DNA of 36,981 bases from Candidatus Dormiibacterota bacterium (GTDB lineage Bacteria; Chloroflexota; Dormibacteria; Aeolococcales; Aeolococcaceae): contig PLWW01000055.1 in the NCBI GenBank assembly GCA_003153125.1, positions 1 to 36,981 of the forward strand. Reading direction: 5' to 3'. The translations under genes were made by a program, and so were the position numbers. A model generated the notes under the pieces. It did no database searches and was not told where the DNA came from. It was given only the letters and a program-made list of their open reading frames with translations. Positions 7,621-35,745 of the stretch are shown piece after piece; position 1 is the first letter of the stretch; each line of letters opens with the position of its first letter.

Positions 7621-7622
7621 CC

Positions 7623-8357: not shown

Positions 8358-8359
8358 TC

Positions 8360-9121: not shown

Positions 9122-9124
9122 TCG

Positions 9125-11810: not shown

Positions 11811-11824
11811 AAAGAGGACACACC

Positions 11825-12136: not shown

Positions 12137-12171
12137 CGCACGCGGCCGCGGCATTAGACCGCGGCGGCTCG

Positions 12172-16088: not shown

Positions 16089-16118
16089 CGCGGTCTCCTC
16101 CTGCCAGGTCGCCCGGCA

Positions 16119-17552: not shown

Positions 17553-17625
17553 GGATCGGTCTCCTTGACGCTGTCGGGGGTGGCGCTGCCGGGTCGCGTT
17601 GCAGCGGTGATGGCGAGCTGCGAGA

Positions 17626-18894: not shown

Positions 18895-20078
18895 CAGATC
18901 CCCCCCACGTGGATGCCCGGATTGCAGACGCCGGCGGGATCAAAGCGCTGCTTGACGCGCCGCGCCAGCGCCACCGCCGGACCGTCGACGCCCCACGGGT
19001 CCACGGCCGCCCGCAGCTCGGCCGGCGCGTCGAGCAGCACGCAGGTGGCCGGGGCAAGCTCGGCACGCAGCCTCCGCACCAGCGCCGCATCCGCGGGGAT
19101 GCGCAGCCAGGCGAGACCGAGGCCGGCGCGGGCCACCCCGGACGGAGCCGCGCCGAGAACCGCCGCGAGCGCGGTGGCCAGCGCCGAGACACGCAACACC
19201 GCCTCGCCGTCCCGCGCTCGCTGCCGGCTGCGCTGCTCGGCCCAGGTGGCGTCGTCATCCTCGGTGACGGTGACCTCGAGACCCTGCGCGGCCGCGGCGG
19301 TCGCGGCGATGCCGGCGACCTCGGCGGGAGCTCTCCCTGCGGATCGCGCCAGCAGCGCACCGCCGGCCGCGGGGCCGTCCCAGCGCAGGTCGAGCGCCTC
19401 GAGTTGCAGCGGCAGACGAGCCAGCGCCGCCGCTGCCTGGCTGAGCGTCCCGAGGTCGCCGCCACGGGCGGCGACGGTGACAGTGTGCGCCGGCAGAGGG
19501 TGGAGCCGTACGGTCACCTCGGTGACCACGCCGAGGGTCCCCAACGCCCCGCACATCAGCTTGGCGAGGTCGTAGCCGGCGACGTTCTTGATGACGTTGG
19601 AGCCGGCCCTGGCAACGGTGCCGTCCGGCAGGGCGATGCGCACCCCGAGAATGAGGTCGCGCACCGCTCCGTGGCCGTGGCGCAGAGGCCCCGAGTCGGC
19701 GGTGGCGACGACCCCGCCGATGGTCGCCTCGCCACCCGGGTTGGGAGGATCGAGCGAGAGCCGCTGTCCGCGATCGGCGAACGCAGTCTGCGCGTCGGTA
19801 AGGCGGACGCCCGCCTCGAGGACCGCGGTGAGGTCGCCTTCGTTGTGCGCGACCAGGTGGCCCAGTTTGCGGGTGGACAGCTCGACCTCGGCGGCGGGCC
19901 CCACGCCACCCCAGTCGGTCTTGGTGCGGCCGCCGACCGGGCGCACGGTTCGTCCGGCGCTGAGAAGCTCGGCCACCTCGGCCGCGGTGGTGGGCCGCTC
20001 GACGGTGATCAGAAGCGCTCCGCCAACCCGGCGGCCTCCAGCGGATGGACACGGTTGGGCCCGGGCACCTCGCCGCAC
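18894..20078 (-). CDS. glcE: Glycolate oxidase FAD-binding subunit (GlcE-like)
   Basis: A PCMH-type FAD-binding protein. Landmarks are RPVGGRTKTDWGG, GEATIGGVVATADSGPLRHGHGAVRD, GSNVIKNVAGYDLAKLMCGALGTLG and the closing RVKQRFDPAGVCNPG. The start is uncertain. The frame reaches a GTG at 20078, which would overlap glcD by 70 bp; family sequence begins near ITVERPTT, right at the glcD stop (about 20005), where only CTG is near. It overlaps glcF by 3 bp. GlcE is the second flavin-fold subunit of glycolate oxidase. Confidence 0.85.
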   Translation of the reverse strand: MRRGARAQPCPSAGGRRVGGALLITVERPTTAAEVAELLSAGRTVRPVGGRTKTDWGGVGPAAEVELSTRKLGHLVAHNEGDLTAVLEAGVRLTDAQTAFADRGQRLSLDPPNPGGEATIGGVVATADSGPLRHGHGAVRDLILGVRIALPDGTVARAGSNVIKNVAGYDLAKLMCGALGTLGVVTEVTVRLHPLPAHTVTVAARGGDLGTLSQAAAALARLPLQLEALDLRWDGPAAGGALLARSAGRAPAEVAGIAATAAAAQGLEVTVTEDDDATWAEQRSRQRARDGEAVLRVSALATALAAVLGAAPSGVARAGLGLAWLRIPADAALVRRLRAELAPATCVLLDAPAELRAAVDPWGVDGPAVALARRVKQRFDPAGVCNPGIHVGGI

Positions 20079-21511
20079 AGCCGCGGCGTCGGCATCACCT
20101 TGCCAGGATTCGCGAGGCCGTCGGGATCGAACGCGCAGCGCAGCTTCTGGAAAGCGGCGAGGTCGGGCTCATCGAACATCCGCGGCATGTAACCTTTCTT
20201 GTCGACCCCGACGCCATGCTCGCCGGTGATCGAGCCGCCCGCGTCGAGGCACGCCTGAAGGATGAGTGTGGCCACCTTCTCAGCCCGGGCGGCCTCGTCC
20301 GGGCCGGCGTAACACACCATCGGATGGAGGTTGCCGTCGCCGGCATGGAAAACGTTGGCCACCTTCAACCCGTGCTCGGCGCCGAGCTCCTCAACCCGGG
20401 CCATCACCTCCGGCAGTCGGGTGCGGGGAATCACCCCATCCTGCACGTAATACCGTCCAGAGATGCGACCGGCTGCGGGAAACGCCGACTTGCGCATCTT
20501 CCAGAAGACGCTGCGCTCGGCCGCGGTCCGGGCGACGCGGATCTGCGTGGACCCGGTGTCGACGCAGATGGCCTTGAGCTCGGCGAAGCCAGCTTCGCAG
20601 TCGGCCAGGGTGCCGTCGAACTCGACGAGTAGCGCCGCACCGGCCTCGGCCGGCCAGCCAGCATGCGCCATCTGTTCGGAAGCGGCGATCGACAGCGCGT
20701 CCATCATCTCGATGGCACAGGGCGTGAGCCCGGCGGCCACCACCGCGCTGGTCGCCGCCGAGGCGGCGACCACGCTGCCGAAGAACGCAACCAGCGTGCG
20801 GGTGTGCTCGGGGGTGGGAATGACCCGGAGCGTGATGCGGGTGGCCACGCCCAGCGTCCCTTCCGAGCCGACGAATGCCCCGAGCAGGTCGTAGCCGGGA
20901 ACGTCCACCTCGCCGTGGCCGCCGAGAGTGACCATCTCGCCGTCGGTGAGCACCACGTCGAGACCGAGCACGTAGTTGGTGGTGAACCCGTACTTGAAGC
21001 AATGAGCCCCACCGGAGTTCTCGGCCACGTTGCCGCCGATGGTGCACACCGTCTGGCTCGAGGGGTCGGGGGGGTAGAAGAAGTGGGGGCCCACGGCCGC
21101 GCTGACCGCGGTGTTGGTGACCCCCGGCTCGACGACCACCAGGTGGTTGTCGAGGTCGACCTCAAGGATGCGGTTCATCCGAGTGAGCACGAGAAGCACG
21201 CCGTCCGCGACTGGGAGCGCTCCCCCCGACAGGCCGCTGCCGGCGCCTCGGGCCACCCAAGGAACCCTGGCAGCGTGGCAGGCGCGAACCACCGCCTGCA
21301 CCTCCTCGGCCGAGTTGGGCAGCACCGCCACCGCGGGCATGACCTGGAAGTGGGTGAGGCCATCCGATCGGTAGGCGTGCAGATCGTGCGGATGGGTGAT
21401 GACGTGCTCGGTGCCGCAGATCTTTTGGAACCGGCCGATCAGCGCCGCGGCCACGTTCGCGCCCGCACCGGCCACCGCGCCGGAGGCTCCCGGCGGCGAC
21501 TCGCTGGCCAT
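20009..21511 (-). CDS. glcD: Glycolate oxidase catalytic FAD subunit (GlcD-like)
   Basis: A 500-residue FAD-linked 2-hydroxyacid dehydrogenase. FAD-binding PCMH motifs are RGAGSGLSGGALP, VCTIGGNVAENSGGAHC and the GYDLLGAFVGSEGTLGV loop. The C-terminal FAD-oxidase domain includes NVFHAGDGNLHP and GSITGEHGVGVDKKGYM with the metal/catalytic His residues. ATG 21511 follows GGAGGAGAG, so it is chosen over an in-frame ATG at 21571. It is the first gene of the minus-strand operon, divergent from the FAH gene. D-lactate or another 2-hydroxy acid is an equally possible substrate. Confidence 0.9.
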   Translation of the reverse strand: MASESPPGASGAVAGAGANVAAALIGRFQKICGTEHVITHPHDLHAYRSDGLTHFQVMPAVAVLPNSAEEVQAVVRACHAARVPWVARGAGSGLSGGALPVADGVLLVLTRMNRILEVDLDNHLVVVEPGVTNTAVSAAVGPHFFYPPDPSSQTVCTIGGNVAENSGGAHCFKYGFTTNYVLGLDVVLTDGEMVTLGGHGEVDVPGYDLLGAFVGSEGTLGVATRITLRVIPTPEHTRTLVAFFGSVVAASAATSAVVAAGLTPCAIEMMDALSIAASEQMAHAGWPAEAGAALLVEFDGTLADCEAGFAELKAICVDTGSTQIRVARTAAERSVFWKMRKSAFPAAGRISGRYYVQDGVIPRTRLPEVMARVEELGAEHGLKVANVFHAGDGNLHPMVCYAGPDEAARAEKVATLILQACLDAGGSITGEHGVGVDKKGYMPRMFDEPDLAAFQKLRCAFDPDGLANPGKVMPTPRLCGEVPGPNRVHPLEAAGLAERF

Positions 21512-21636: not shown

Positions 21637-22473
21637 GTGCGGTTGGTCAGATTCAGCGCTGACGGCGCTGCCAGGGTGGGCGCCCTTGCGCACGGCTCGA
21701 TCACCGAGCTGGCCGGAACCTGGACCGACGTTCTAGAGCAATTCAGCGGGGGAACCGCCGTAAGGCCCGCCACTACCGGCCCGTTCTGGACCGCAGCCGA
21801 CTGCACGCTGCGTGCGCCGCTGCCGAACGCCTCCCGGCCGATCTTCTGCATGGGCATGAACTACGTCGACCACGAGGCTGAAGCGGGCCAACCGCTGGGC
21901 GCCGTAGCCCCGGCGAAGCCGGTGGTGTTCGTCAAGCAGGCGGAAGCCATGGCCGACCCCGATGAGGTGCTCCACCTCGACGGCCGCCTTTCCGAGGAGT
22001 TCGACTGGGAGGTGGAACTGGCGGTGATCATCGGCCGGCCGGGGCGGGACATCGCCCCCGAGCGCGTCCGTGACCACATCGCTGGGTACACGGTGCTGAA
22101 CGACGTCACAGCCCGCGACCTGCAGCGCGGCCACGTCCAGTGGTTCATCGGCAAGAACATCCACCGGTCCTCGCCCATCGGACCCTGGGTGACCACGGCT
22201 GACGAGATCGCCTACCCGCCTGACCTCGCCCTGACCCTGACCGTCAACGGGGTGGAGAAGCAGAGAGCGCGCACCAGCGAGCTGATCTTCGACATCGACA
22301 CCTTCGTCAGCACCCTGTCGCGGTACGTGGAGCTTCAGTCTGGAGACGTCTTCGCCACCGGCACACCCGCCGGCGTCGGCTTCACCCGGACGCCGCCGGA
22401 GTTCCTGCGCAGCGGTGACCTCATGGTGGCCGAGATCGAGTCCATCGGCCGAATCGAGAACAGGGTGGCGTAA
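21637..22473 (+). CDS. Fumarylacetoacetate hydrolase (FAH) family protein
   Basis: A 278-residue FAH-fold enzyme. Landmarks are FCMGMNYVDHEAEAG, the metal-binding DWEVELAVIIG (Glu125, Glu127) and VLNDVTARDLQ (Asp156), FIGKNIHRSSPIGPW and the closing TGTPAGVGFTR...GDLMVAEIESIGRIENRV. The GTG at 21637 follows AGAGGGAG and starts right where the family does. Relatives act in lower meta-cleavage pathways as C-C hydrolases, decarboxylases, isomerases or hydratases of oxo-dienoates. It is the first gene of the second plus-strand module, 4 bp before a regulator gene. The exact reaction is not readable. Confidence 0.88.
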   Translation: MRLVRFSADGAARVGALAHGSITELAGTWTDVLEQFSGGTAVRPATTGPFWTAADCTLRAPLPNASRPIFCMGMNYVDHEAEAGQPLGAVAPAKPVVFVKQAEAMADPDEVLHLDGRLSEEFDWEVELAVIIGRPGRDIAPERVRDHIAGYTVLNDVTARDLQRGHVQWFIGKNIHRSSPIGPWVTTADEIAYPPDLALTLTVNGVEKQRARTSELIFDIDTFVSTLSRYVELQSGDVFATGTPAGVGFTRTPPEFLRSGDLMVAEIESIGRIENRVA

Positions 22474-22477
22474 GAAC

Positions 22478-23185
22478 ATGGATCAGGTGCTGTCCACGAG
22501 CCTCGAAACCCCAGCGGCCGAAGACCAGCCGATGGTGACTAGCGTCCATCGCGCGGTCTGCGACCGAATCCGCCGCGACATCCTGCGGGGGCGCATCGCT
22601 GGTGGAATCCGCCTCCACCAGAGTGACCTGGCGCGCGCCTACGGCGTGAGCGTCACACCCGTCCGCGAGGCGCTCCGCGACCTCGCCGCCGAGGGACTCG
22701 TGGACGTCACCGTCTACTCAGGTGCCGTGGTCCACCAGCCCACGCTCGAGGAACTCGAGCAGATCTACCAGATCCGCGCGTCGCTACTGCCGCTGGCGGT
22801 GAAGGAGGCTGTGCGGCGGATAACGCCTGCAGAGTTGCGTACGGCCGATCAGCTCATCAGCAGCATGGCGGCCGCCGCCTCGCCCGAACAGTGGCTCGAA
22901 GGCAATCGCCGGCTGCATCACCTCTTCGACGAGGCGGCCCGCAACTCCCACCTGACGACAATCCTGCGCCGACTTGGCGACCTTTCCACCCTGTACGTGA
23001 ACATCTCGTTGGACCCCGCTGCGTTGGTTCGCGATGCGGACGAGGAGCACCGAGCGATTCTCGAGGCGTATCGAGCCGGCGACGAGGTGGCGGCAGAACG
23101 ACTCACCATCCAGCATTTCGGGAAGACGTTGGAGATGTCACGCACCCGGCTGCTTGCCGAGCACCGTGGGGAGGCGGACCAATGA
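22478..23185 (+). CDS. FCD-type GntR family transcriptional regulator
   Basis: A 235-residue GntR regulator. The winged helix (about residues 17-85) includes LHQSDLARAYGVSVTPVREALRDLAAEGLV; the FCD domain follows with the usual His residues (LHHLFDEAARNSHL, DEEHRAILEAY). It starts 4 bp after the FAH gene and its TGA overlaps the next ATG, so it is co-transcribed with the pathway it probably controls. The repeat at 21593-21622 is the best local candidate for its binding site. It is a distant paralogue of the regulator at 3659. Confidence 0.9.
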   Translation: MDQVLSTSLETPAAEDQPMVTSVHRAVCDRIRRDILRGRIAGGIRLHQSDLARAYGVSVTPVREALRDLAAEGLVDVTVYSGAVVHQPTLEELEQIYQIRASLLPLAVKEAVRRITPAELRTADQLISSMAAAASPEQWLEGNRRLHHLFDEAARNSHLTTILRRLGDLSTLYVNISLDPAALVRDADEEHRAILEAYRAGDEVAAERLTIQHFGKTLEMSRTRLLAEHRGEADQ

Positions 23186-24114
23186 CCTATGCGACCGTTG
23201 ACGGGCCATCGATCAGCCAGTATCCGGTCGTGGCCGGTGATCTGGTCACCCGGGTCCTGGACTGCCGAGGCGGTGACACCACGGTGGTCTGCCTGCATGG
23301 CGCGGGATCCCGCGCCGACCGCTTCTGGCACAACATCGCGCCGGTGGCGGCGGCGGGGTACCGGGTCATCGCGATGGACTTTCCCGGGCACGGGTATGCC
23401 ACCAAGGGCGCCTCGGTCACCCACTCCACGCCCGCGTTCGCCGGCTTCGTCATCGAAGTACTGCGCGCACTCGACGTGCAGCGCCCGGTGATCGTTGGCA
23501 CCTCCCTGGGAGCCCATGTCGCCGCCGCCATCGCGGCCGACGACCCGGAGGCGGTGAGCGCACTGGTGCTGATCGGCGCCGTGGGCATCGTCCCCGCAGA
23601 GCCGCGCGACGGTCCGCTGTCGCCGATCCCCATGTGGGACGCGTCGCCGGACGCGATCCGCACCAAGCTGCGGATGGTGGTCGCGGATCCGGCGCTGATC
23701 ACCGACGAGTGGGTCAACGAGGAATCGCACATCAACAGCTCGCCGGGCGCGCGCGAATCACTGGAGGCCGTGGCCGACTACCTGGGCAACGGTGTCGAGC
23801 GCGACAGCGTCGGCGACCGGCTCCTGGAGCGCGCATCGCACGTCCCCACGCTGCTTGTCTGGGGGGGCGAAGACCGCTGGGTGCCGCCGTCGGTGGGGTT
23901 CAGGACCAAGGAGCTGCTCGCTGGGCCTGAGCTGGTGGTGATGCCGGGCACAGGGCACGCGCCGTATTACGAGGATCCTGAAACCTTCAACCGCCTGCTC
24001 ATCGACTTCCTCGCGGGCAGGCGCGTCGCAGGCCAGGTCGCAGCGGGTGCGGTCCGAGGCGGGGCCGAACAGGAAAGTGGACCGGACGGTCCGCGCCAGA
24101 GGGGAAGCGCATGA
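23182..24114 (+). CDS. Alpha/beta hydrolase (meta-cleavage product hydrolase-like)
   Basis: A 310-residue serine hydrolase. VVCLHGAGSRADRFW gives the oxyanion region, VGTSLGAH the nucleophile elbow (Ser108), GGEDRW the acid (Asp231) and MPGTGHAPYYE the base (His259), the layout of MhpC/BphD-type C-C bond hydrolases. The ATG overlaps the stop of the GntR gene (ATGA) and its own TGA overlaps the SDR start. The last 30 residues are a charged, low-complexity tail. In context it could hydrolyse a ring-fission product; an esterase or amidase role is the alternative. Confidence 0.83.
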   Translation: MTYATVDGPSISQYPVVAGDLVTRVLDCRGGDTTVVCLHGAGSRADRFWHNIAPVAAAGYRVIAMDFPGHGYATKGASVTHSTPAFAGFVIEVLRALDVQRPVIVGTSLGAHVAAAIAADDPEAVSALVLIGAVGIVPAEPRDGPLSPIPMWDASPDAIRTKLRMVVADPALITDEWVNEESHINSSPGARESLEAVADYLGNGVERDSVGDRLLERASHVPTLLVWGGEDRWVPPSVGFRTKELLAGPELVVMPGTGHAPYYEDPETFNRLLIDFLAGRRVAGQVAAGAVRGGAEQESGPDGPRQRGSA

Positions 24115-24902
24115 GTGTCGCCACCAGGTCAAGCACGGTGATCCCTGAGTTCGACCTCACCGGCAAAGTTGCGGTGGTCACGGGAGGCAACCGCAGCATC
24201 GGCCGGGGCTCGGCGGTGGTGCTCGCCGAGGCGGGTGCCAGCGTGGTCCTCGCGGGACGCAACCAGGAGGACCTCGAACGTGTCCGCGAGGAGATCACCG
24301 AGCGCGGTGGGACCGCGCTGGCGGTGCGCTGTGACGTCAGCAAGGAGGCTGACATCGACAACCTCTTCGCGCGAACCGTCGCTGAGCTGGGCCGAGTGGA
24401 CATCTGCCTGGTCAGCGCCGGCGTCTTCGGCAAGTGGCAGTCCGCTGAGCTGATGGAGCTCGATGAGTGGGACACCATCTACGACATCGACCTGCGCGGG
24501 GCGATGCTCACCTCGATGGCGGCGGGCAAGCAGATGATCGCCCAGGGCTCGGGCGGAAGCATCGTCACCATCGCGTCGATCCAGGGAGTGGTCGGCATCA
24601 AGGGAACGGTCGCCTACACGGCCGCCAAGCACGGCGTGGTGGGCATGACCAAGGGCCTTGCGTTGGACTGGGCCGAGCACGGCATCAGGGTGAACTGCAT
24701 CGCGCCAGCGTTCATCGCGCGTGATGTCGAGCCACTCCAGAAGGATCCAGTGGCCGTGGAGTTCGTCACCGCCCGCACACCGCTGCAGCGCTGGGGCACG
24801 TGCCGTGAGCTCGGCCTTGCGGTGCTGTTCCTCGCGTCCCCGGCGTCGAGCTACGTCACCGGCACGGTGCTCAACGTCGACGGCGGCTGGTGCGCGCAGT
24901 GA
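24111..24902 (+). CDS. Short-chain dehydrogenase/reductase (FabG-like)
   Basis: A 263-residue classical SDR. The cofactor motif is TGGNRSIGRG (24-33), catalytic Ser156 is in IASIQG, and Tyr169 and Lys173 are in YTAAKHG. Two positions differ from the norm: the NNAG motif reads VSAG, and the catalytic-tetrad Asn expected in the NxxG helix is Asp127 (DIDLRG). The C-terminus ends GTVLNVDGGW as usual. The start overlaps the hydrolase stop and its stop overlaps the RidA start, so all are one operon. It likely oxidises or reduces a hydroxy/oxo intermediate with NAD(P)(H). Confidence 0.87.
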   Translation: MSVATRSSTVIPEFDLTGKVAVVTGGNRSIGRGSAVVLAEAGASVVLAGRNQEDLERVREEITERGGTALAVRCDVSKEADIDNLFARTVAELGRVDICLVSAGVFGKWQSAELMELDEWDTIYDIDLRGAMLTSMAAGKQMIAQGSGGSIVTIASIQGVVGIKGTVAYTAAKHGVVGMTKGLALDWAEHGIRVNCIAPAFIARDVEPLQKDPVAVEFVTARTPLQRWGTCRELGLAVLFLASPASSYVTGTVLNVDGGWCAQ

Positions 24903-25324
24903 GCTCAGCGGACACCGCTGCAGGCAGCGCGCCGGAATTCCTCAATCCGCCGAGCGTGGGAGAGCCGATCGGAGCGTACTCTCACGTCGCCAAGAGCGGG
25001 GATACGTACTTCGTTGCTGGTCAAGTGGCGATCGACAGGCAGGGTAACGTCGTCGGCGACGGTGACCTGGCGGCCCAGCTGACCCAGACGTTCGCCAACA
25101 TCGGCGACATCCTGTCGTCGCTTGGCCTCGGTTTCGCCAATGTCGCGCAGATGACCACTTACCTCACCCAGCGCACCCACGTCGCTGAGTTCTACGAGGC
25201 GCGGCGCGTGCTCTTCCCCTCGCTTTTCGTCGATGCCATGTATCCACCCAACACATTGCTGATCATCGCCGGGCTGGTCCGGCCGGAGCTTCTCATCGAG
25301 GTGCAGCTGATCGCTACCGCGTGA
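24899..25324 (+). CDS. RidA (YjgF/YER057c/UK114) family protein
   Basis: A 141-residue RidA-fold protein. GAYSHVAKSGDTYFVAGQVAID, the helix QTFANIGDILSSLGLGFANV and MYPPNTLLIIAGLVRPELLIEVQLIA carry the pocket Arg (Arg128) and the Glu (Glu134) of the family. The GTG overlaps the SDR stop. RidA proteins hydrolyse enamines/imines; some members are 2-aminomuconate deaminases that act after extradiol cleavage of 2-aminophenols. With a dioxygenase and an FAH enzyme in the same module, a deaminase role on an amino-substituted ring-fission product is a reasonable inference. Confidence 0.88.
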   Translation: MSSADTAAGSAPEFLNPPSVGEPIGAYSHVAKSGDTYFVAGQVAIDRQGNVVGDGDLAAQLTQTFANIGDILSSLGLGFANVAQMTTYLTQRTHVAEFYEARRVLFPSLFVDAMYPPNTLLIIAGLVRPELLIEVQLIATA

Positions 25325-25349
25325 GCGAGGCATTGAAGAAGGGGCACAC

Positions 25350-25448
25350 GTGACGCGTACAGAGGCGAGGAAAGCGCTCGTGACCACGACCAACCGGACA
25401 ACCAAGGCGGCTCTTGTCAACTACGAACGGGGAGGCGAACAGGCATGA
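25350..25448 (+). CDS. Possible 32-residue leader ORF before the second ABC operon
   Basis: A GTG at 25350, with AGAAGGGG 6 bp upstream, opens a 32-codon frame that ends in a TGA overlapping the ATG of the binding-protein gene (ATGA). The product is polar, with many Thr, Arg and Lys and no motif. It could be a translated leader that couples ribosomes to the transporter gene, or chance. It fills most of the 120-bp gap between the RidA and binding-protein genes. Confidence 0.3.
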   Translation: MTRTEARKALVTTTNRTTKAALVNYERGGEQA

Positions 25449-26752
25449 CCACACGCGTGACGATGGCGCGGCTCTCGGCCACGGCGACGCTGGTGGCGCT
25501 GGTCGCTGGTTGCGGCGGCGGCGGCGGCGGCGGCGGCAGCAGTAGCAGTAGCGGTGTGGGGACGCTGGTGTTCGGCGAACTCATGCCCTTCACCGGTGAC
25601 CAAGCCACTGAAGGCGGGCAGGTGACCAACGGCTGCCAACCGGCGATTGCGGTGATCAACAAGGCCGGCGGCGTGCTCGGCAACAAGGTGACCTGCCAGG
25701 AGTTCGACACTCGAGGCGACGCCGTCGACGCGGTGCCGGCGGCGCAGAAGATGCTCGCCACGACCACAAACCTGGTCGGCGTGCTCGGCCCCAGCACCGC
25801 GGAGGCGCCTGCGACGGAGCCCCTGCTGCAGCAGGCCAACATGCCGATGTTCTCGGTGGCCGGCGACCCGCAGTTCGATAAGAGCACCGACCCGTACTTC
25901 TACCGCTTCACGCCGGCCGACGACCTCGCCGCCAAGGCGCTGGCGCTCGAGGCCAAGAATCTCGGGTACAAGCGGGTCGCGGTGGTCTTCACCGCCGGTG
26001 ACAGCGCGCAGGCCAACGTTCCATCGCTGCAGGCGGTGGCCCCGATCCTCGGACTGCAGATCACCGACGCGCTCTCGATCACGCCCAACCAGCCGTCCTA
26101 CCGCACCGAGGTCGCCAAGCTTCTTGCCAACCACCCCGATGTGATCATCAACGAGGGCGACCCTCAGAGCGATGCCACCTTCTTCGGTCAGTTGAAGGAA
26201 GCTGGCGGCAACATTCCCATGGTGATCACCGCCGTCGCCACCTTCAGCGACTGGCAGAACGCGATGAGCACCGCCATGGGTAGCGCTGTCCTGGCCGACC
26301 TGATGACCGTCATCGATCCCTACACGCCGACCGAGGGCGAGGGCTGGCAGGTCTTCAACGACACCCTCAAGGGCCTGCACGGCAACGGCGTCGACTACAA
26401 GCAGTACAACGCCGACATCTACTCGCGCACCACCTACGACGCCTGCATCGCCATGGCGCTGGCCATGACAGCATCCAACTCCATCGATCCCAAGACGTAC
26501 AACCCACACATCGCCGACATCCTCACCCCGGGCTCGGACAAGACCACGGTGCACACCTACCAGGAGGGACTCGACGCGCTCAAGGCGAGCAAGAAGATCT
26601 ACCTGGTGGGCGCCGGTGGCGAGCTGGGGCTCAACCAGTACCACAGCGTCGCTGGTGCATTCGAGACGCAGCACTATGACCCCGCGACGAAAGCGCTCGT
26701 CCACGTAGGCGTGATCCCTAACGACGAGTTGAAGGCACTGTCGCTCGGCTGA
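25445..26752 (+). CDS. ABC transporter substrate-binding lipoprotein (second Liv-type importer)
   Basis: A 435-residue receptor with a lipoprotein signal peptide ending LVAGC (Cys23). The Cys is followed by eight Gly and five Ser, a flexible tether, before the type I binding fold starts at LVFGELMPFTGDQATEGGQ. A GGGGAGG ribosome site precedes the ATG at 25445. Body features such as YYRFTPADDLAAKA-like and VAVVFTAGD segments fit the Peripla_BP_6 family. It heads the second five-gene importer and is only distantly similar to the receptor at 4442, so the two systems probably differ in ligand. Confidence 0.9.
   Translation: MTTRVTMARLSATATLVALVAGCGGGGGGGGSSSSSGVGTLVFGELMPFTGDQATEGGQVTNGCQPAIAVINKAGGVLGNKVTCQEFDTRGDAVDAVPAAQKMLATTTNLVGVLGPSTAEAPATEPLLQQANMPMFSVAGDPQFDKSTDPYFYRFTPADDLAAKALALEAKNLGYKRVAVVFTAGDSAQANVPSLQAVAPILGLQITDALSITPNQPSYRTEVAKLLANHPDVIINEGDPQSDATFFGQLKEAGGNIPMVITAVATFSDWQNAMSTAMGSAVLADLMTVIDPYTPTEGEGWQVFNDTLKGLHGNGVDYKQYNADIYSRTTYDACIAMALAMTASNSIDPKTYNPHIADILTPGSDKTTVHTYQEGLDALKASKKIYLVGAGGELGLNQYHSVAGAFETQHYDPATKALVHVGVIPNDELKALSLG
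25514..25552 (+). repeat. (GGC)8 plus AGC/AGT repeat coding Gly8-Ser5
   Basis: Eight perfect GGC codons directly after the lipidated Cys codon are followed by AGC-AGT-AGC-AGT-AGC. The repeat codes the tether between membrane anchor and binding domain. Simple triplet repeats can change length without shifting the frame. Confidence 0.85.
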
Positions 26753-26771
26753 TGATGAACAAGCGGAGCGC

Positions 26772-27659
26772 ATGAGCCTGATCCTGCCGACGATCGGCTT
26801 CAGCCTGATCAGCGCGTCGATCCTCGCGCTAGCGGCAGTCGGGTTCACGCTGCAGTTCGGCGTCACCAACATCCTCAACCTCGCCTTCGCCGAGGTGATG
26901 ACGTCATCGGCGTTCGTGGCCTACTGGGTGAACAGCAGGGGCATCTCGATCTGGATCGGCATGCTCGTCGCAGGTCTGTTTGGAGCGATCCTATCGCTGC
27001 TCATCAACCGGTGGCTCTACCGCCCTTTCATCCGCAGCGGGACACGACTCTTTGGGCTGATCATCGTCAGCATGGGCTTGGCGCTGATCATCCAGAACGG
27101 CGTGTTGGCGATCACCGGCCCGGGCTTCTTCACGTACGACCAGCCTCACGGCCTCGCCTTCGATGTGGCTGGCATCCGGTTCACGTACACCGAGTTGGCC
27201 ATTCTGCTCATCGCCGTCGTCGCCATGGCGGCGGTGCATCTGCTGCTGACCCGGACGCGGCTGGGCAAGGCGATGCGGGCATGCTCCGCCGATTCGGCTC
27301 TGGCCCGTTGCTCGGGGGTGCCGACCGCGCGCGTCGTTGACATCGCCTGGTTGCTCTCCGGCGCGCTGGCCGGCATCGCCGGCGTCACCCTCTTCATGAA
27401 CACGACCGCGTTCTCGGTGACCACCAGCGGGGATTTTCTCGTGGTCATCATTGCGGCGGCGATCCTCGGCGGTGTGGGGGATGCCTACGGGGCCATGCTC
27501 GGCGCGCTGATCATCGGCTTCGCCACCGAGTTCTCCGCTCTCTTTCTCAACTCCGCGTACAAGACCGCGATCGCGTTCGTCATCCTGGTTGTGGTTCTGC
27601 TGATCAGGCCCCAGGGGGTTCGCGCCGCGTTTGCGGCCGCTCGCGAGGTGCAGACGTGA
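26772..27659 (+). CDS. Branched-chain-type ABC transporter permease (LivH-like, second set)
   Basis: A 295-residue permease with about eight hydrophobic segments: AVGFTLQFGVTNILNLAFAEVMT near the start, AMRACSADSALARCSGV as the ATPase-contact loop, and ILGGVGDAYGAMLGALIIG near the end, all LivH-like. It starts 19 bp after the binding-protein gene; its TGA overlaps the GTG of the next permease (GTGA). Confidence 0.9.
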   Translation: MSLILPTIGFSLISASILALAAVGFTLQFGVTNILNLAFAEVMTSSAFVAYWVNSRGISIWIGMLVAGLFGAILSLLINRWLYRPFIRSGTRLFGLIIVSMGLALIIQNGVLAITGPGFFTYDQPHGLAFDVAGIRFTYTELAILLIAVVAMAAVHLLLTRTRLGKAMRACSADSALARCSGVPTARVVDIAWLLSGALAGIAGVTLFMNTTAFSVTTSGDFLVVIIAAAILGGVGDAYGAMLGALIIGFATEFSALFLNSAYKTAIAFVILVVVLLIRPQGVRAAFAAAREVQT

Positions 27660-28702
27660 GCAACGCGACCCAGTTCTACGTCACCACTCTGCTCATCTAT
27701 GGGGCGGTCTCGATCATCGCCTGCTGGGGGCTCGATCTCCAGTTCGGCGACACTGGGATTCTCAATTTCGCGTTCATCATGTTCCAGGCGGCGGGTGCTT
27801 ACACGGCCGCAGTGCTCACGCTGGGACCCTCGACCCAGTCCAATCCGCTCAGCAACTATCAGCAGTACGTCTTCGGGGCGTCGGTCCCGTACCCAGTGTC
27901 GGTGTTCGCTGCCGCTCTCGTGGGGGCGCTGCTGTCGTACCCCATCGGGGTGGTCGCGCTGCGACGGCTGCGCTCGGACTATCAGGCGGTGGCCATGCTG
28001 GTGGTGTCGTTGATCGCGACGACCGTGGTGATCAGCGACACTGGTTTACTCGACGGCGAGCGTGGTCTCTTCCTCATCCCCAAGCCCCTGCGCGACTCCG
28101 CTGACACCCTACTCGGCTACCAGTGGCTGTACGTTGGCATCAGCTGCGTCTTCCTGGCAGTGGTCCTGTGGGTCATCGCTCGCATCTCGCGCGCCCCGCT
28201 GGGCCGCAGCCTCCGCGCCATCCGCGAATCGGAGTCGGCGGCCGCAGCACTCGGCAAGAACGTGCTCTCCCTGCGCATGGGCGCGTTTGTGGTGGGGAAC
28301 ATGATCGCCGCCATCAGCGGCGCGCTCCTGGTCCAGTACATCGGGTCGTGGTCGCCCAATGGTTGGCTGTACCCGGAGACCTTCGTATATCTCGGCGCCA
28401 TTATCATCGGCGGCGCGGCGAACAAGCTCGGGGTGCTGATCGGTGCGCTGCTCCTTCCCGTTGGCATCTCCGAGGGCGTGCGCTACCTCCCCTCGTTCGG
28501 TGGCCCGGGCTTCGTCGACGCCGTCCAATTCATGCTCATCGGAGTGTTGATCATTGCCTTCATGTGGTTCCGCCCGCGCGGTCTCGTGCCGGAGCGACGC
28601 CGGACGTTCGGGAATCCGCGGTGGTCCTTCCGCCGCAGGACACCCGGGGCGGGCGTCGCCACCGCGATGCCGTCGGCGGATGAGCAGGGGCTGGCGGGCT
28701 GA
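27656..28702 (+). CDS. Branched-chain-type ABC transporter permease (LivM-like, second set)
   Basis: A 348-residue permease starting with GTG inside the previous stop. LivM-type landmarks include CWGLDLQFGDTGILNFAFIMF, the AIRESESAAAALGKNVLSLRMGAF loop that contacts the ATPases, and LGAIIIGGAANKLGVLIGALLLP. About nine to ten hydrophobic segments are visible, with a basic cytoplasmic tail. It pairs with the LivH-like protein to form the second importer channel. Confidence 0.9.
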   Translation: MSNATQFYVTTLLIYGAVSIIACWGLDLQFGDTGILNFAFIMFQAAGAYTAAVLTLGPSTQSNPLSNYQQYVFGASVPYPVSVFAAALVGALLSYPIGVVALRRLRSDYQAVAMLVVSLIATTVVISDTGLLDGERGLFLIPKPLRDSADTLLGYQWLYVGISCVFLAVVLWVIARISRAPLGRSLRAIRESESAAAALGKNVLSLRMGAFVVGNMIAAISGALLVQYIGSWSPNGWLYPETFVYLGAIIIGGAANKLGVLIGALLLPVGISEGVRYLPSFGGPGFVDAVQFMLIGVLIIAFMWFRPRGLVPERRRTFGNPRWSFRRRTPGAGVATAMPSADEQGLAG

Positions 28703-28703
28703 G

Positions 28704-29492
28704 GTGAGCGCGCTCCCCGCCGAGGCCGTGGGCCGCCCCATCCTCTCCGCGCGCTCGCTGTCGCACTCATTCCAGGCGGTCCGCGTCGTCGACGGCGTGT
28801 CCATCGACATCGATGAGGGCAGGTTATACGGCTTGATCGGTCCGAATGGCGCCGGGAAATCCACGGTAATGAACATCCTCGCCGGCGCGCAAAAGCCGAT
28901 CGGAGGCACCACCCATTACGGTGGCGTCGACATCACGCGATGGCCGGCGTATCGGCGGGCGCGGCACGGGGTCATTCGCACCTTCCAGCTATCCAACGAG
29001 TTTGCCCGCCTCACCGTGCTCGAGAACCTGCTCGTCGCCGTCCCTAACCAGCCGGGTGACACCTTCCGCGAGGTGTTCACCACGCCGCGGCGCCGCTGGA
29101 ACCGGCGCCAGGGCGAGTCCCTCGACCGGGCACGCGCACTGCTCGCCCGTTTCAACATGGAGGCCAAAGCGGACGACTACGCCAGCGACCTCAGCGGCGG
29201 TCAGAAGCGCATCCTCGAGATCCTCAGGGCGGTCATGGCGCAGCCCCGGTTGCTCCTTCTCGACGAGCCTCTTGCCGGCATCCATCCGCGCATCATCGAG
29301 TCGGTCTGCGACTACCTTCGCGAGTTGCGCCGCGAGGGCGTGACCATCCTGATGATCGAGCACGAGCTCGAGGTCGTCGAGACGCTCTGCGACGCGGTGG
29401 TGGTGATGGCCAGCGGCATCGTGATCTTTCGCGGCAGCATGACCGAGGCACGCCAGCGCAGGGAGGTCATCGATGCCTATGTCGCCGGCTGA
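28704..29492 (+). CDS. ABC transporter ATP-binding protein (LivG-like, second set)
   Basis: A 262-residue ATPase: Walker A GPNGAGKST, the LivG-type VIRTFQLSNEFARLTVLENLLVA segment, signature LSGGQKR, Walker B LLLLDEPLAGI and switch MIEHELEVV. GTG 28704, 1 bp after the LivM stop, is preferred; an ATG at 28680 would overlap that gene. The 3' end overlaps the next gene by 20 bp. Confidence 0.88.
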   Translation: MSALPAEAVGRPILSARSLSHSFQAVRVVDGVSIDIDEGRLYGLIGPNGAGKSTVMNILAGAQKPIGGTTHYGGVDITRWPAYRRARHGVIRTFQLSNEFARLTVLENLLVAVPNQPGDTFREVFTTPRRRWNRRQGESLDRARALLARFNMEAKADDYASDLSGGQKRILEILRAVMAQPRLLLLDEPLAGIHPRIIESVCDYLRELRREGVTILMIEHELEVVETLCDAVVVMASGIVIFRGSMTEARQRREVIDAYVAG

Positions 29493-30309
29493 CGCGGTGC
29501 AGCGGCCACCGGCCGTGCTCACCACGCGTGGCCTCACTGCTGGCTACGGGAGGGTGCAGATCATCCGCGATATCTCTGTCGACATCGGCAGGGGAGAGGT
29601 GGTCGCCATCGTCGGCCCCAACGGTGCGGGCAAGAGCACCTTGCTCAAGGCCATCATGGGGCTGATCCACGTGTGGGACGGTGAGCTGGTGGTCGGCGAA
29701 ACGCCGGCGAGCGCCCTGGCCACCGAAGGGCTGGTGCGTCGGGGTGTCGGATACGTGCCCCAGATCGGAGACGTCTTCACGCCGCTGTCAGTATCGGAGA
29801 ACCTCGACATCGGCGCGTACACGCTGCCGCAGTCGGAGGTAGCCAGGCGCCGTCAGGAGGTCATCGACGTCTTCCCCCGGGTCGGTACCCTGCTCCACCG
29901 CACCGCCGGAAAGCTGAGCGGTGGCGAGCGCAAGATGGTGGGCATCGCCCGTGCGCTGATGAGTAGGCCCAGCGTGCTGCTGCTAGACGAGCCCACCGCG
30001 GGGCTGTCCGCGGAGGTGGCCAACACGCTTCTCACCAGCCATCTGCAGACACTGCGCGGCGTCGGCGTCGGCATTCTCCTCGTGGAGCAGAAGGCCACTG
30101 CGGCCCTCGATGCCGCGGATTGGTCGTACGTGATGGCGGCGGGACAGGTGCGGTTCAGCGCCCGTGCCCGAGAGCTTCGCGAGCACCCGCGCTTCAGCGA
30201 CATCTTTTTCGGTGTGATCCAGCCGGACTCGCAGGCGACTCAGGGGTCCGCCGACACCGACGAGACCATATCCACGACTGCACAGGAGGACACGGCATGG
30301 GCGAAGTAG
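29473..30309 (+). CDS. ABC transporter ATP-binding protein (LivF-like, second set)
   Basis: A 278-residue ATPase: Walker A GPNGAGKST, the LivF-type GYVPQIGDVFTPLSVSENLDIG segment, signature LSGGERK, Walker B VLLLDEPTAGL and switch LVEQKATAAL. GGGAGG lies 8 bp before ATG 29473, inside the end of the LivG-like gene. A 30-residue polar C-terminal tail overlaps the start of the dioxygenase gene by 13 bp, tying the importer to ring cleavage. Confidence 0.88.
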   Translation: MPMSPADAVQRPPAVLTTRGLTAGYGRVQIIRDISVDIGRGEVVAIVGPNGAGKSTLLKAIMGLIHVWDGELVVGETPASALATEGLVRRGVGYVPQIGDVFTPLSVSENLDIGAYTLPQSEVARRRQEVIDVFPRVGTLLHRTAGKLSGGERKMVGIARALMSRPSVLLLDEPTAGLSAEVANTLLTSHLQTLRGVGVGILLVEQKATAALDAADWSYVMAAGQVRFSARARELREHPRFSDIFFGVIQPDSQATQGSADTDETISTTAQEDTAWAK

Positions 30310-31265
30310 TGCTCGGGATCTCGATGTCGCATGCGCCCGGAATCCTCGGCTGGCCGGAGGCGCCTGCGGCAGACAAGCGGGACCGCATGCAGGAGGCACT
30401 GCAGACCATCAGCCAGCAGCTCGAGGCTACCCGGCCGGACGTGCTGATCGCGTTCCTCGACGACCACTTCGACAACCACTTCCGTAACCTCATGCCGACT
30501 TTTGCAGTGGGCATCGCACCCAGCCACGCCGGTCCCAGCGAGCACTACTTCGAGATGCTCCGCATCGACCGCAAACGCGAGGTGCCGAGCCACGAGGAGA
30601 TGAGCGAGGCACTGCTCAGTCACCTGGTGCACAGCGGGTTCGACGCCGCGCGCATGGGTCACATCGAGTACGGCAACAACCTGATGGTGGCGCTGGCCCT
30701 GATCCGTGATCAGCTCGACATCCCGGTCGTCCCCGTTTTCATCAATGTGTTCACGCCGCCGATCACGCCGCCGGCACGCGCCTACCAACTCGGCGAGCTG
30801 GTGCGATCATTCGTCGATGGGCGACCCGAAAGAGTCGGCTTCCTCGCCACGGGCGGGCTGTCCCACTGGCCGCCGTTCTGGACGGACAGCAGCCCCGCCG
30901 ACGATCCGCTCTTCGCGCGGATGAAGCGCTACCAGACGGAGGGCCGCTCATACCTGAGGGAGGATCCCGACCTGATCACCGACGTCGGCAAATGGGAGCA
31001 GGCGACCGCGGCGCAGTCGGACCAGCCCCTCGTCAATGAGGCATGGGACCGGGATTTCCTGGACGCGCTGGGCCGCGGCGACATCGACTACATGAAGAAC
31101 CTCACCTTCGCCAGTGTCGAGAAGGACGCCGGCAACGGCGGCCACGAGGTGCTCAACTGGATCGCGCTCATGGGTGCCATGCGCGGTGAGCCGGCGGAGA
31201 TCCTCGCCTACGAGCCCGTCAAGGAGTGGATCTGCGGCATGGGATTCGCCCTCTATCGCGGCTGA
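30297..31265 (+). CDS. Class III extradiol ring-cleavage dioxygenase, LigB type (second copy)
   Basis: A 322-residue LigB-family Fe(II) dioxygenase. Likely ligands and catalytic residues are His12 (MSHAPG), His57 (DDHFDNHF), His122 (MGHIEYG), His190 (GGLSHWPP) and a Glu in GHEVLNWIALMGAM. It is about 40 residues longer than the paralogue at 10971, mainly in the insert after SHWPPFW, and no LigA-type gene lies next to it. The ATG sits inside the last codons of the LivF-like gene. Some single-subunit members act on gallate or aminophenol-type rings. The substrate is unknown, but RidA and FAH genes in the same unit point to an amino-substituted ring as one option. Confidence 0.86.
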   Translation: MGEVVLGISMSHAPGILGWPEAPAADKRDRMQEALQTISQQLEATRPDVLIAFLDDHFDNHFRNLMPTFAVGIAPSHAGPSEHYFEMLRIDRKREVPSHEEMSEALLSHLVHSGFDAARMGHIEYGNNLMVALALIRDQLDIPVVPVFINVFTPPITPPARAYQLGELVRSFVDGRPERVGFLATGGLSHWPPFWTDSSPADDPLFARMKRYQTEGRSYLREDPDLITDVGKWEQATAAQSDQPLVNEAWDRDFLDALGRGDIDYMKNLTFASVEKDAGNGGHEVLNWIALMGAMRGEPAEILAYEPVKEWICGMGFALYRG

Positions 31266-31280: not shown

Positions 31281-32531
31281 ATGACGGTCCCGGCGTCCGC
31301 AACGACCGCGGGACCTGACGCCGGGGCGCACGCTTTCGGCGGCCAGGCCGCTCATACGGCGAGGTTGCTGTCCCTGCTCTGCACCGGCTTCATCCTCCGC
31401 GCGGTCTTGCTCGGCGTACCGCCGGTCCTCGAACAACTGCGCCGCAGCCTGGGCCTCAGTCACGGGATGGCCGGGCTGGTTATTGGCCTGCCGGTGCTCG
31501 TGCTCGGCCTCAGTGCTCTCCCCGGCGCCGCGATCACCCGGCGGATCGGGGCGGCTCGGACCGTCGGGGCCGGGCTGGTCCTGCTGGCCGTGGGCGCGGT
31601 TCTCCGTGCCGCTCCTGGCGGCTTCACCAGCGTCATGATCGGCACGCTGTTGCTCGCCGTCGGAATCGGTGCGGCGCAGCCGCCGCTGGCGCGGCTCGCT
31701 CAAGTGTGGTTTCCGCGGCAGGTGCAACGCGCCGCCACCGTCATGACCCTGGGGCTACTCGTCGGCGGCATCGCCGGTGCCGCCCTCACGCCGTTCGTGG
31801 TGCACGGCGTCGCGCACGACTGGCGGGGCAGCTTCGTGTTCTGGTCGGTTCCGGCGGCCCTGGCGGTGGTGATGTGGCTGGCCGTGGCGTCGCGCTCACC
31901 GGACGGCAGCGCCGGTCAGGCCCCCGTCCGGATCGGACCGCTGCTCGCCGATCCACGCGTCCGCTGGATCACCCTTCTCTTTGCCGCCCAGGGGGTGACC
32001 TTTTACACCAGCAACACTTGGATCGCGGGCGCCTCGGCCGGAGGCGCGGATACCCCCGCGGCCGCGCTCAATCTGCTCTGCCTCAATGGGGCGGCGCTGC
32101 CGATAACCCTAGTCCTCACCGCCACGCGGCGCAGCTTCACCGATTCGAGGCGCTTCTACGTCGCCGCCGGTCTACTGTCGATCGCCGGGACGGCCGGCTG
32201 GACCTTCGCCGGCCCCGAGCTCGGCCCGCTCTGGTCGCTGCTTCTCGGCGGCGGCGGCACCATGGCGCTGGTGGGCGCGACGGCATACTCTCCGATGTCA
32301 TTCCCGCCTGCGCAGGTGGCGGCGGTGGCGGCGACGGTGTGGACCGTGGGCTATATCGCCGCCTTCGTGGGGCCGCCGCTGGCAGGTTTCAGCATTGATC
32401 TTTTCCATAACCCGCGCGCGCCATTCGCACTGTGCCTTGCGTTCAGCTTTCTGCTCATCCTGGGAGGGTTGAGGCTCCCGCGCACGGTCCCTGGAGCGGT
32501 GCCCGCAACAGACCCGGCTGCAGGGGATTGA
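31281..32531 (+). CDS. MFS transporter, CynX/NimT family (second copy)
   Basis: A 416-residue membrane transporter with about 12 hydrophobic segments. The N-terminal GFILRAVLLGVPPVLEQLRRSLGLSHGMAGLVIGLPVLVLGLSA is typical of the CynX/NimT branch. It starts 15 bp after the second dioxygenase gene and ends the second module, mirroring the transporter that ends the first. No cyanase gene is present, so cyanate is not the likely substrate. Confidence 0.85.
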   Translation: MTVPASATTAGPDAGAHAFGGQAAHTARLLSLLCTGFILRAVLLGVPPVLEQLRRSLGLSHGMAGLVIGLPVLVLGLSALPGAAITRRIGAARTVGAGLVLLAVGAVLRAAPGGFTSVMIGTLLLAVGIGAAQPPLARLAQVWFPRQVQRAATVMTLGLLVGGIAGAALTPFVVHGVAHDWRGSFVFWSVPAALAVVMWLAVASRSPDGSAGQAPVRIGPLLADPRVRWITLLFAAQGVTFYTSNTWIAGASAGGADTPAAALNLLCLNGAALPITLVLTATRRSFTDSRRFYVAAGLLSIAGTAGWTFAGPELGPLWSLLLGGGGTMALVGATAYSPMSFPPAQVAAVAATVWTVGYIAAFVGPPLAGFSIDLFHNPRAPFALCLAFSFLLILGGLRLPRTVPGAVPATDPAAGD

Positions 32532-35583: not shown

Positions 35584-35745
35584 ATGGTCAAGAGCCGGTA
35601 CTCCATGGCATCCATGTCGACTCGGGGTCGTGGCCGGTTGCTCGGTCCCTATCCGGTCTGCCGGGAGAAGGCTTTCTTCGAGGCCAATCAGGGTGGCCGG
35701 CGCGTGCGGAGCTGCAACGCGTGCGGCCATGAGGAGCGCCCATGA
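35584..35745 (+). CDS. Small Cys-containing (zinc-ribbon-like) protein
   Basis: A 53-codon frame from ATG 35584 (ATGs at 35605 and 35614 are alternatives) ending in a TGA that overlaps the phosphatase ATG. The C-terminal half, PYPVCREKAFFEANQGGRRVRSCNACGHEERP, looks like a one-knuckle-plus-CxxC zinc ribbon in which the first Cys of the expected CPxC pair is Tyr. The tight coupling to the next gene and the ribbon pattern support a real gene; the missing Cys may mean partial decay. Function is unknown. Confidence 0.4.
   Translation: MVKSRYSMASMSTRGRGRLLGPYPVCREKAFFEANQGGRRVRSCNACGHEERP

What the first reader, a model, noticed from the sequence alone, without database searches (positions are those of the whole stretch)
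21637..31265. RidA, FAH and LigB in one unit suggest an amino-aromatic meta-cleavage route
2-Aminomuconate deaminases of 2-aminophenol-type pathways belong to the RidA family, and the ring-opening enzyme of those pathways belongs to the LigB family. Here RidA, an FAH-fold enzyme, a C-C hydrolase-like protein, an SDR and a LigB enzyme share one transcription unit with an importer. No aldehyde dehydrogenase of the usual type is seen; the SDR would have to replace it or the route differs.
Basis: partly seen in the sequence, partly recalled or inferred. Interest (0 to 1): 0.55.

Follow-up and report, generated by a model that had tools for sequence, protein, structure and literature searches.

The report
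Pyridone ring-opening operon, not aminophenol
A bacterium known only from environmental DNA carries a set of genes that most likely imports and takes apart a small nitrogen-containing ring compound of the hydroxypyridine kind (related to the plant toxin mimosine), using a new mix of known parts and an unusual member of a small helper-enzyme family.

Summary
The aminophenol reading is not favoured. The LigB protein falls in a 9-row clade (SH-aLRT 100) with those of rhizobial mimosine-type plasmids (PydA, 3-hydroxy-4-pyridone dioxygenase) and has their signature motifs; 2-aminophenol dioxygenase lies outside. Searched alone, the RidA finds the same six pydA plasmids as its best six of 529; a clade with 2-aminomuconate deaminases is rejected (AU p 0.013). 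Divergently next door is an amidohydrolase 56-62% identical to ones in two actinobacterial operons with monooxygenase, hydrolase, RidA and FAH, a layout like the kpi 4-hydroxypyridine cluster. The locus looks like a hybrid pyd/kpi unit: open the ring, deformylate, deaminate, split formylpyruvate; no aldehyde dehydrogenase is needed. The hydrolase and importer are not the pyd ones; substrate and reactions are inferred. The RidA lacks the essential arginine but, like all 12 Rids examined from such or related loci, has an arginine at another position: a testable relocation.

The parts
21637..22473 (+). FAH-family hydrolase; proposed 3-formylpyruvate (acylpyruvate) hydrolase
   Evidence: PF01557 5e-67; 35-42% identity to FAHs of pyd, kpi-like, Thioclava and JS3073 loci; not specific: most of its best plasmid hits are elsewhere
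22478..23185 (+). GntR/FCD regulator
   Evidence: PF00392/PF07729; GntR/FCD genes also lie next to PydA or amidohydrolase genes elsewhere
23182..24114 (+). alpha/beta hydrolase; proposed N-deformylase of the ring-opened product
   Evidence: PF00561/PF12697; 42-45% to the hydrolases of the BX2 and G1263 amidohydrolase operons, 19-22% to PydB-type hydrolases of CB3060, SA1 and G479, 26% to that of L004; Ser (GTSLG), Asp and His of the triad aligned
24111..24902 (+). SDR oxidoreductase of unknown role (side chain of the substrate?)
   Evidence: PF13561 1e-61; overlaps its neighbours; in annotated pyd loci SDR genes are only seen some kb away
24890..25324 (+). Rid protein, PPNTLL type (Asn121 at the RidA Arg105 place, Arg105 at the RidA Tyr91 place); proposed enamine deaminase
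   Evidence: PF01042
25445..26752 (+). periplasmic binding protein, Liv type
   Evidence: PF13458 5e-29
26772..27659 (+). Liv-type permease
   Evidence: PF02653
27656..28702 (+). Liv-type permease
   Evidence: PF02653
28702..29492 (+). ABC ATPase (start approximate; frame open from 28554)
   Evidence: PF00005
29473..30309 (+). ABC ATPase
   Evidence: PF00005 5e-31
30297..31265 (+). LigB-family dioxygenase of the PydA clade; proposed ring-opening enzyme
   Evidence: 51-55% identity to 6 plasmid and 1 genome relatives; clade support 100; motifs DDHFDNH and EWICGM
31281..32531 (+). MFS carrier, CynX type
   Evidence: PF07690, TIGR00896 below its cut-off
16119..17552 (-). Amidohydro_1 protein, about 477 aa, divergent neighbour; candidate second (KpiC-like) ring-opening enzyme or a hydrolase of the same pathway
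   Evidence: PF01979 1e-34; 61-62% to BX2, 56% to G1263 amidohydrolases in operons with monooxygenase, alpha/beta hydrolase, Rid and FAH
17626..21511 (-). GlcF, GlcE, GlcD-type hydroxyacid oxidase genes (17626-18894, 18894-20078, 20009-21511; starts approximate); role in the pathway unknown
15219..16088 (-). 3-hydroxyisobutyrate / tartronate-semialdehyde reductase type protein
   Evidence: PF03446 2e-31; NCBIfam hits below cut-off

Best explanation
The unit is a catabolic operon for a 3,4-dihydroxypyridine / 3-hydroxy-4-pyridone type ring (or a close derivative), a hybrid of the pyd (mimosine) and kpi (4-hydroxypyridine) gene sets. Proposed sequence, every step inferred from homology and from the pathway in PMC7356986: the Liv-type importer brings the compound in; the PydA-clade LigB enzyme (and possibly also the divergent amidohydrolase, if it is KpiC-like) opens the ring between C2 and C3 with O2 to 3-(N-formyl)-formiminopyruvate; the alpha/beta hydrolase removes the N-formyl group; the Rid protein hydrolyses the remaining enamine (3-formiminopyruvate) to 3-formylpyruvate and ammonia; the FAH enzyme splits that to formate and pyruvate; GntR regulates. 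SDR, GlcDEF, the reductase and the MFS carrier probably deal with a side chain or with export and are unassigned. No ring hydroxylase is in the unit, so the compound either arrives dihydroxylated or is hydroxylated by an enzyme encoded elsewhere.
For: LigB: six plasmid records at 53-55% identity, the next at 34%; five of the six are rhizobia, four of those from mimosoid hosts, with the order PydA-like gene, alpha/beta hydrolase, ABC, FAH, RidA, pyc, LysR, ABC in all five and a PatB-type lyase seen in two, which fits midABCD and pydABCDE as described in PMC11524260. Tree: 9-row clade, SH-aLRT 100, with 2-aminophenol dioxygenase subunits, MhpB, gallate dioxygenase and CarBb outside. PydA primer motifs in PMC3637104 are DDHFENH and EWICGM; the window has DDHFDNH and EWICGM. 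RidA alone recovers the same six records as its best six of 529. RidA and FAH lie within about 8 kb of the pydA-like gene in 7 of the 9 other records or genomes looked at. The amidohydrolase and the alpha/beta hydrolase both have their best plasmid hit in one operon of R. rhodochrous BX2; a second operon in G1263 has FAD_binding_3 monooxygenase, FAH, GntR/FCD, Rid, alpha/beta hydrolase, amidohydrolase, the family list and sizes of kpiA, D, R1, B, C (PMC7356986 Table 1).
Against: The alpha/beta hydrolase is only 19-26% identical to the PydB-type hydrolases, which are 42-58% identical to each other in four lineages; the importer is Liv type, not the sugar type of the pyd loci. The FAH is no closer to pyd FAHs than to many others. 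The Rid lacks the arginine on which known Rid deaminase activity depends (PMC4433059, PMC8113886). No monooxygenase or mimosine lyase in the window, and only short partial FAD_binding_3 hits in the genome, whose bin is 86% complete. G497 has a PydA-clade gene with no Rid or FAH within about 15 kb, and L004 none on its 8.5 kb contig. The amidohydrolase is close to prolidase/carboxypeptidase types and barely matches enamidase, the nearest characterised relative reported for KpiC. PydA itself had not been purified (PMC3637104), so the activity of the family rests on genetics.
Confidence: 0.65

Rival explanations
1. 2-Aminophenol-type modified meta-cleavage: LigB opens an aminophenol, RidA acts as 2-aminomuconate deaminase, the SDR replaces the aldehyde dehydrogenase.
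For: Same broad families; 6izh (2-aminomuconate deaminase) is among the PDB matches of the RidA at E about 7e-9.
Against: LigB lies with PydA, apart from CnbCa/CnbCb; phmmer reached a 2,3-dihydroxyphenylpropionate dioxygenase, LigAB and gallate dioxygenase but no 2-aminophenol dioxygenase chain; a RidA clade with 6izh and the pCNB Rid is rejected, AU p 0.0133, and both of those have the canonical arginine; no aldehyde dehydrogenase, aldolase or two-subunit dioxygenase in the unit.
Confidence: 0.07
2. Another hydroxylated N- or O-heteroaromatic (a substituted 3-hydroxy-4-pyridone, a hydroxypyridine carboxylate, or a 3-hydroxy-4-pyranone) is the substrate; the chemistry is as proposed but the compound is not 3,4-dihydroxypyridine, which would explain the SDR, GlcDEF and the different hydrolase and importer.
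For: Distinct importer and hydrolase; SDR tied into the operon by overlaps; divergent GlcDEF, amidohydrolase and reductase genes; related Rid and FAH genes also sit in loci with Rieske or flavin monooxygenases and no PydA.
Against: PydA motifs and the Rid group are shared with the rhizobial loci; there is no direct substrate evidence.
Confidence: 0.22
3. Ordinary benzenoid meta-cleavage (catechol-like substrate, C-C hydrolase, FAH-fold hydratase), with RidA a general enzyme that happens to be in the operon.
For: The alpha/beta hydrolase has NCBIfam matches (below cut-off) to HsaD and BphD and 33% identity to MhpC; LigB is distantly related to MhpB.
Against: RidA is not of the housekeeping type and its nearest plasmid relatives are in the pydA plasmids; the FAH has no hydratase-specific match.
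Confidence: 0.06

Closest known systems
pyd genes of mimosine degradation (Rhizobium sp. TAL1145 pydA-E in the literature; read here in Rhizobium sp. CB3060, Sinorhizobium americanum, S. terangae and S. chiapasense plasmids)
   Same: PydA-clade LigB with the signature motifs, RidA of the same group, FAH, GntR regulator, an importer
   Different: alpha/beta hydrolase not PydB-like, Liv-type importer instead of sugar type, SDR in the operon, no pyc, no mid genes, probably non-proteobacterial host, divergent amidohydrolase and GlcDEF
kpi cluster of Arthrobacter sp. IN13 (4-hydroxypyridine)
   Same: alpha/beta hydrolase, FAH, GntR/FadR-type regulator and an Amidohydro_1 protein of about 475 aa
amidohydrolase-Rid-FAH operons of Rhodococcus rhodochrous BX2 (L146) and of the actinobacterium G1263 (L160)
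   Same: amidohydrolase 56-62% and alpha/beta hydrolase 42-45% identical, Rid and FAH adjacent
   Different: they have a flavin monooxygenase and no LigB
2-aminophenol meta-cleavage genes (pCNB of Comamonas testosteroni CNB-1; AmnE of Pseudomonas sp. AP-3)
   Same: LigB-family dioxygenase beside a RidA-family protein
   Different: different LigB and Rid groups; aldehyde dehydrogenase present there
E. coli rut operon (RutC 3-aminoacrylate deaminase, RutD alpha/beta hydrolase)
   Same: a Rid protein hydrolysing a beta-enamine made by opening an N-heterocycle
   Different: RutC keeps its arginine (Arg104); no LigB or FAH

Membership tests
PydA (3-hydroxy-4-pyridone dioxygenase), for the LigB protein | groups with PydA-like proteins of mimosine-type loci | tested here: met
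   9-row clade, SH-aLRT 100; TAL1145 PydA itself was not available
PydA (3-hydroxy-4-pyridone dioxygenase), for the LigB protein | conserved motifs DDHFENH and EWICGM (PMC3637104) | tested here: met
   DDHFDNH and EWICGM; one conservative E to D change
PydA (3-hydroxy-4-pyridone dioxygenase), for the LigB protein | LigB metal ligands and catalytic His | tested here: met
   His12, His57, His190 and Glu284 invariant in A1 and in the alignment with LigB of 1b4u; roles of the residues recalled
PydA (3-hydroxy-4-pyridone dioxygenase), for the LigB protein | cleaves 3,4-dihydroxypyridine | not testable with these tools
   needs an assay
pyd operon, for the whole unit | RidA and FAH beside pydA | tested here: met
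pyd operon, for the whole unit | PydB-type alpha/beta hydrolase | tested here: not met
   19-26% identity against 42-58% among PydB-type hydrolases
pyd operon, for the whole unit | pydCDE-type importer (sugar-type ABC) | tested here: not met
   Liv-type importer
kpi cluster | KpiC-type amidohydrolase dioxygenase | tested here: inconclusive
   same superfamily and length, kin in kpi-like operons, but only 25 bits to enamidase; KpiC sequence not held
kpi cluster | KpiA flavin monooxygenase | tested here: not met
   none in the unit; only short partial PF01494 hits in the genome
2-aminophenol meta-cleavage pathway | LigB of the 2-aminophenol 1,6-dioxygenase type | tested here: not met
   CnbCa and CnbCb outside the clade
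2-aminophenol meta-cleavage pathway | RidA of the 2-aminomuconate deaminase type | tested here: not met
   AU p 0.0133
2-aminophenol meta-cleavage pathway | aldehyde dehydrogenase for the semialdehyde | tested here: not met
   none in the unit
Arg-bearing Rid imine deaminases (RidA, Rid1-3, RutC) | arginine at RidA position 105 | tested here: not met
   Asn121 in the window protein
Arg-bearing Rid imine deaminases (RidA, Rid1-3, RutC) | deaminase activity | not testable with these tools
   needs an assay

The most novel reading that the evidence does not exclude
The Rid proteins of hydroxypyridine-type loci form a group in which the essential active-site arginine has moved: Asn, Ala or Ser at position 105 but Arg at position 91 in 12 of 12 rows, whereas the four Arg105 Rids have Tyr or Trp at 91. 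They would be dedicated deaminases of a ring-opened enamine (3-formiminopyruvate), giving a function to Rids that lack the arginine, and they work downstream of two unrelated ring-opening enzymes (LigB type and amidohydrolase type), both of which this locus carries.
Probability: 0.3. Interest if true: 0.65.

Novelty: new variant of a known kind. Interest (0 to 1): 0.5.

Why it matters
It would extend the pyridone (mimosine-type) ring-cleavage route to a lineage, probably non-proteobacterial, in which it was otherwise not seen (1 of 400 genomes of its phylum, the window's own), propose an enzyme for the enamine-hydrolysis step that PMC7356986 leaves open, and offer a concrete test of what arginine-less Rid proteins, called 'mysterious' in PMC4433059, can do.

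Tried and rejected
The 2-aminophenol reading was tested by two trees and rejected as the best account. A housekeeping RidA was rejected by the same Rid tree and by positions 105 and 91. Mis-binning of the contig was considered: window pieces have tetranucleotide distances 0.12-0.155 against 0.149 +- 0.046 for 25 pieces of 18 other stretches of the bin, and the left half is syntenic at 73-99% amino-acid identity with two genomes of the same family, so it was rejected. Riboflavin (lumichrome) catabolism, which also has an FAH and an extradiol enzyme, was looked at in passages of PMC12746152 and set aside: P450, xanthine oxidase, Rieske and catechol dioxygenase are named there. Identity of the amidohydrolase with KpiC could not be settled. 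Naming the host phylum failed: an RpoB part is 52-53% identical to Acidimicrobiia over most of its length and matches Proteobacteria only in pieces, so the host is probably neither. An AlphaFold model of the Rid from one sequence was poor (mean pLDDT 42) and was not used. Promoter and terminator scans were at chance level. The small protein after the first LigB gene found no match.

Rows dropped or limits: the LigB tree (rows made) left out the third LigB of the genome and duplicate fetches of the same genes; it is a quick tree with long outgroup branches, which the tool flags. The first Rid tree held one mis-framed row (G479_c), corrected; the last tree left out two rhizobial Rids and two paralogues of the own genome. 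The counts for positions 91 and 105 are for the 18 rows, which are not independent (three rows are rhizobial, three are from G479); of the two further rows, Variovorax has Arg91 without Arg105 and Streptomyces has neither, so the swap is not exclusive to these loci. The neighbourhood tables keep only matches over about half of a query.
Full report
Observation. The stretch 21637-31265 holds, on the plus strand, FAH, GntR/FCD, alpha/beta hydrolase, SDR, RidA, a Liv-type binding protein, two permeases, two ATPases and LigB, followed by an MFS carrier. The contig ends at base 36981. The MAG has 3.02 Mb in 130 contigs and is 86% complete.

What the LigB protein is. Its best NCBIfam model is PRK13373 'putative dioxygenase' (371 bits, cut-off 462). 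Among 72,556 plasmid records 199 match; six stand apart at 53-55% identity over at least 92% of the length, the seventh is at 34%. Five of the six are rhizobia, four of them from Leucaena, Desmanthus, Acaciella or Vachellia, and the sixth is Novosphingobium resinovorum SA1. In a tree of 92 LigB proteins the window protein sits in a 9-row clade (SH-aLRT 100) of just these and one alphaproteobacterial MAG protein (one plasmid row is there twice). The rhizobial loci have the order GntR, dioxygenase, alpha/beta hydrolase, three ABC genes, FAH, RidA, pyc, LysR, ABC genes in all five examined, with a PatB-type lyase seen in two of the five stretches, which fits pydA, pydB, pydCDE and midR-midABCD as summarised in PMC11524260 (passages). 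PydA of TAL1145 itself was not available; the paper that describes the pyd genes is not held. The PydA motifs used for primers in PMC3637104 (passages) are met.

What the RidA is. Used alone as a query it matches 529 plasmid records, and the best six are exactly the six with the PydA-type LigB. The final tree of 18 Rids puts it with Rids of pyd loci, of G479, Thioclava, Rhodococcus JS3073 and G1263 (support 87/89, short of the tool's star), apart from E. coli RidA and RutC, the pCNB Rid beside 2-aminophenol dioxygenase, and 6izh; forcing it together with the last two is rejected, p-AU 0.0133. The group has the motif PPNTLL (PPATLL in one) where Arg105 of RidA belongs. Arg105 is essential in RidA and its counterpart in RutC, and Rids without it have shown no deaminase activity (PMC4433059 and PMC8113886, passages). 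In the alignment of 18 rows, 12 of 12 Rids from PydA-, amidohydrolase- or related loci have Arg at the place of RidA Tyr91 and none at 105; the four Arg105 Rids have Tyr or Trp at 91; of two other rows one has Arg91 without Arg105 and one has neither. Tyr91 lies one helical turn from Asn88 (recalled as an active-site residue), so a relocated arginine is a fair hypothesis, not a result.

The neighbours. Close relatives of the divergent amidohydrolase (16119-17552, minus) are in R. rhodochrous BX2 (62%), actinobacterium G1263 (56%) and G125 of the window's own phylum (51%). In BX2 the operon is amidohydrolase, HpaB-type monooxygenase, alpha/beta hydrolase, RidA, FAH with a divergent GntR; in G1263 it is FAD_binding_3 monooxygenase, FAH, GntR/FCD, Rid, alpha/beta hydrolase, amidohydrolase, ABC genes. 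G125 has no such neighbours in 13 kb, and none of the seven more distant amidohydrolase relatives (35-41%) fetched has them either. The window's alpha/beta hydrolase is of the BX2/G1263 type (42-45%), not of the PydB type. PMC7356986 (abstract, the whole of Results and the table) shows that in Arthrobacter IN13 an amidohydrolase-family protein, KpiC, converts 3,4-dihydroxypyridine to a product 32 Da heavier, that the alpha/beta hydrolase KpiB acts next, and suggests the FAH KpiD for the last step; how the enamine is hydrolysed is left open there. Family list and protein sizes of G1263 match kpi. The window therefore seems to combine the LigB and Rid of the pyd kind with the hydrolase and amidohydrolase of the kpi-like kind. 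G479, an alphaproteobacterium, likewise has two PydA copies, a PydB-type hydrolase, FAH, three Rids and an amidohydrolase 36% identical to the window's within about 16 kb.

Against this reading. PydB and pydCDE features fail; the FAH is not specific (of the 15 best rows only SA1 and two Thioclava records are among the Rid-FAH loci discussed here, apart from one Corynebacterium record with FAH, hydrolase and a 28% amidohydrolase); the amidohydrolase is near prolidases and hardly matches enamidase, so its KpiC kinship is open; PydA-clade genes without Rid and FAH nearby exist (G497; L004 on a short contig); the Rid lacks the known catalytic arginine; and no ring hydroxylase or mimosine lyase is in the window. 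RidA and FAH beside the PydA-clade gene: 7 of 9 records or genomes other than the window (six plasmids and G479 yes; G497 and L004 no).

Distribution. A PydA profile at E <= 1e-60 rings in 1 of 400 genomes of the window's phylum (itself), 2 of 385 genomes of one alphaproteobacterial draw and 0 of 369 of the class of G433 (the tool warns that the last empty answer alone shows nothing). Among 60 nearer relatives two match the protein, only at 30-31% identity, through the other LigB of the left unit. With the native-looking composition this suggests gain by transfer some time ago; not tested further.

Literature on the link between Rid and this pathway. In four searches I saw no paper that ties a Rid protein to 3,4-dihydroxypyridine; the one paper listed with formiminopyruvate or formylpyruvate, PMC7356986, does not contain the word RidA (which listed 15 of 10,167). 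Mostly listings were seen, and most subscription journals are not held, so this is a weak negative.

Verdict. The gene observation stands; the aminophenol interpretation does not, while its logic (extradiol opening of an N-bearing aromatic plus Rid) does. The most likely function is import and ring cleavage of a hydroxypyridine or pyridone, as a new variant of a known kind.

Noticed in passing
3593-15014: A second importer-plus-LigB unit: GntR, Liv-type ABC genes, DHDPS-family protein, dipicolinate-synthase-A-like protein, LigB, a small orphan protein, amidohydrolase (Amidohydro_3), MFS. The same order is found at 73-99% identity in two genomes of the same family (G008, G021), and this LigB groups only with its G008 copy. 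A catabolic unit of unknown substrate.
   Followed up: partly
11825-12136: A 103-aa protein after the first LigB gene with no Pfam, NCBIfam or PDB match; its position suggests a LigA-like small subunit (guess from memory).
   Followed up: partly
15219-21511 (minus): GlcDEF, amidohydrolase and a 3-hydroxyisobutyrate/tartronate-semialdehyde reductase type gene in one divergent run between the two LigB units.
   Followed up: partly
990-2243: DDE transposase gene near the contig start; the first and last few kb have few convincing genes.
   Followed up: no
35742-36380: Protein with the sequence VHCQAGLNRSG, like a dual-specificity phosphatase signature (recalled); no NCBIfam match.
   Followed up: no
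L144/L145 (G479:C15): Two PydA-clade genes 10 kb apart with three Rid genes, flavin monooxygenase-like genes and an amidohydrolase: a rich hydroxypyridine-type locus.
   Followed up: partly
L088, L089: Rhodococcus JS3073 and Thioclava plasmids have PPNTLL-type Rid genes with FAH and flavin monooxygenase or Rieske genes but no PydA seen, perhaps other N-heterocycle routes.
   Followed up: partly
G000:C53:1858-5080: rpoB of the own genome is split over several reading frames and its stretch gives undetermined residues, so the MAG has assembly gaps or errors there.
   Followed up: no
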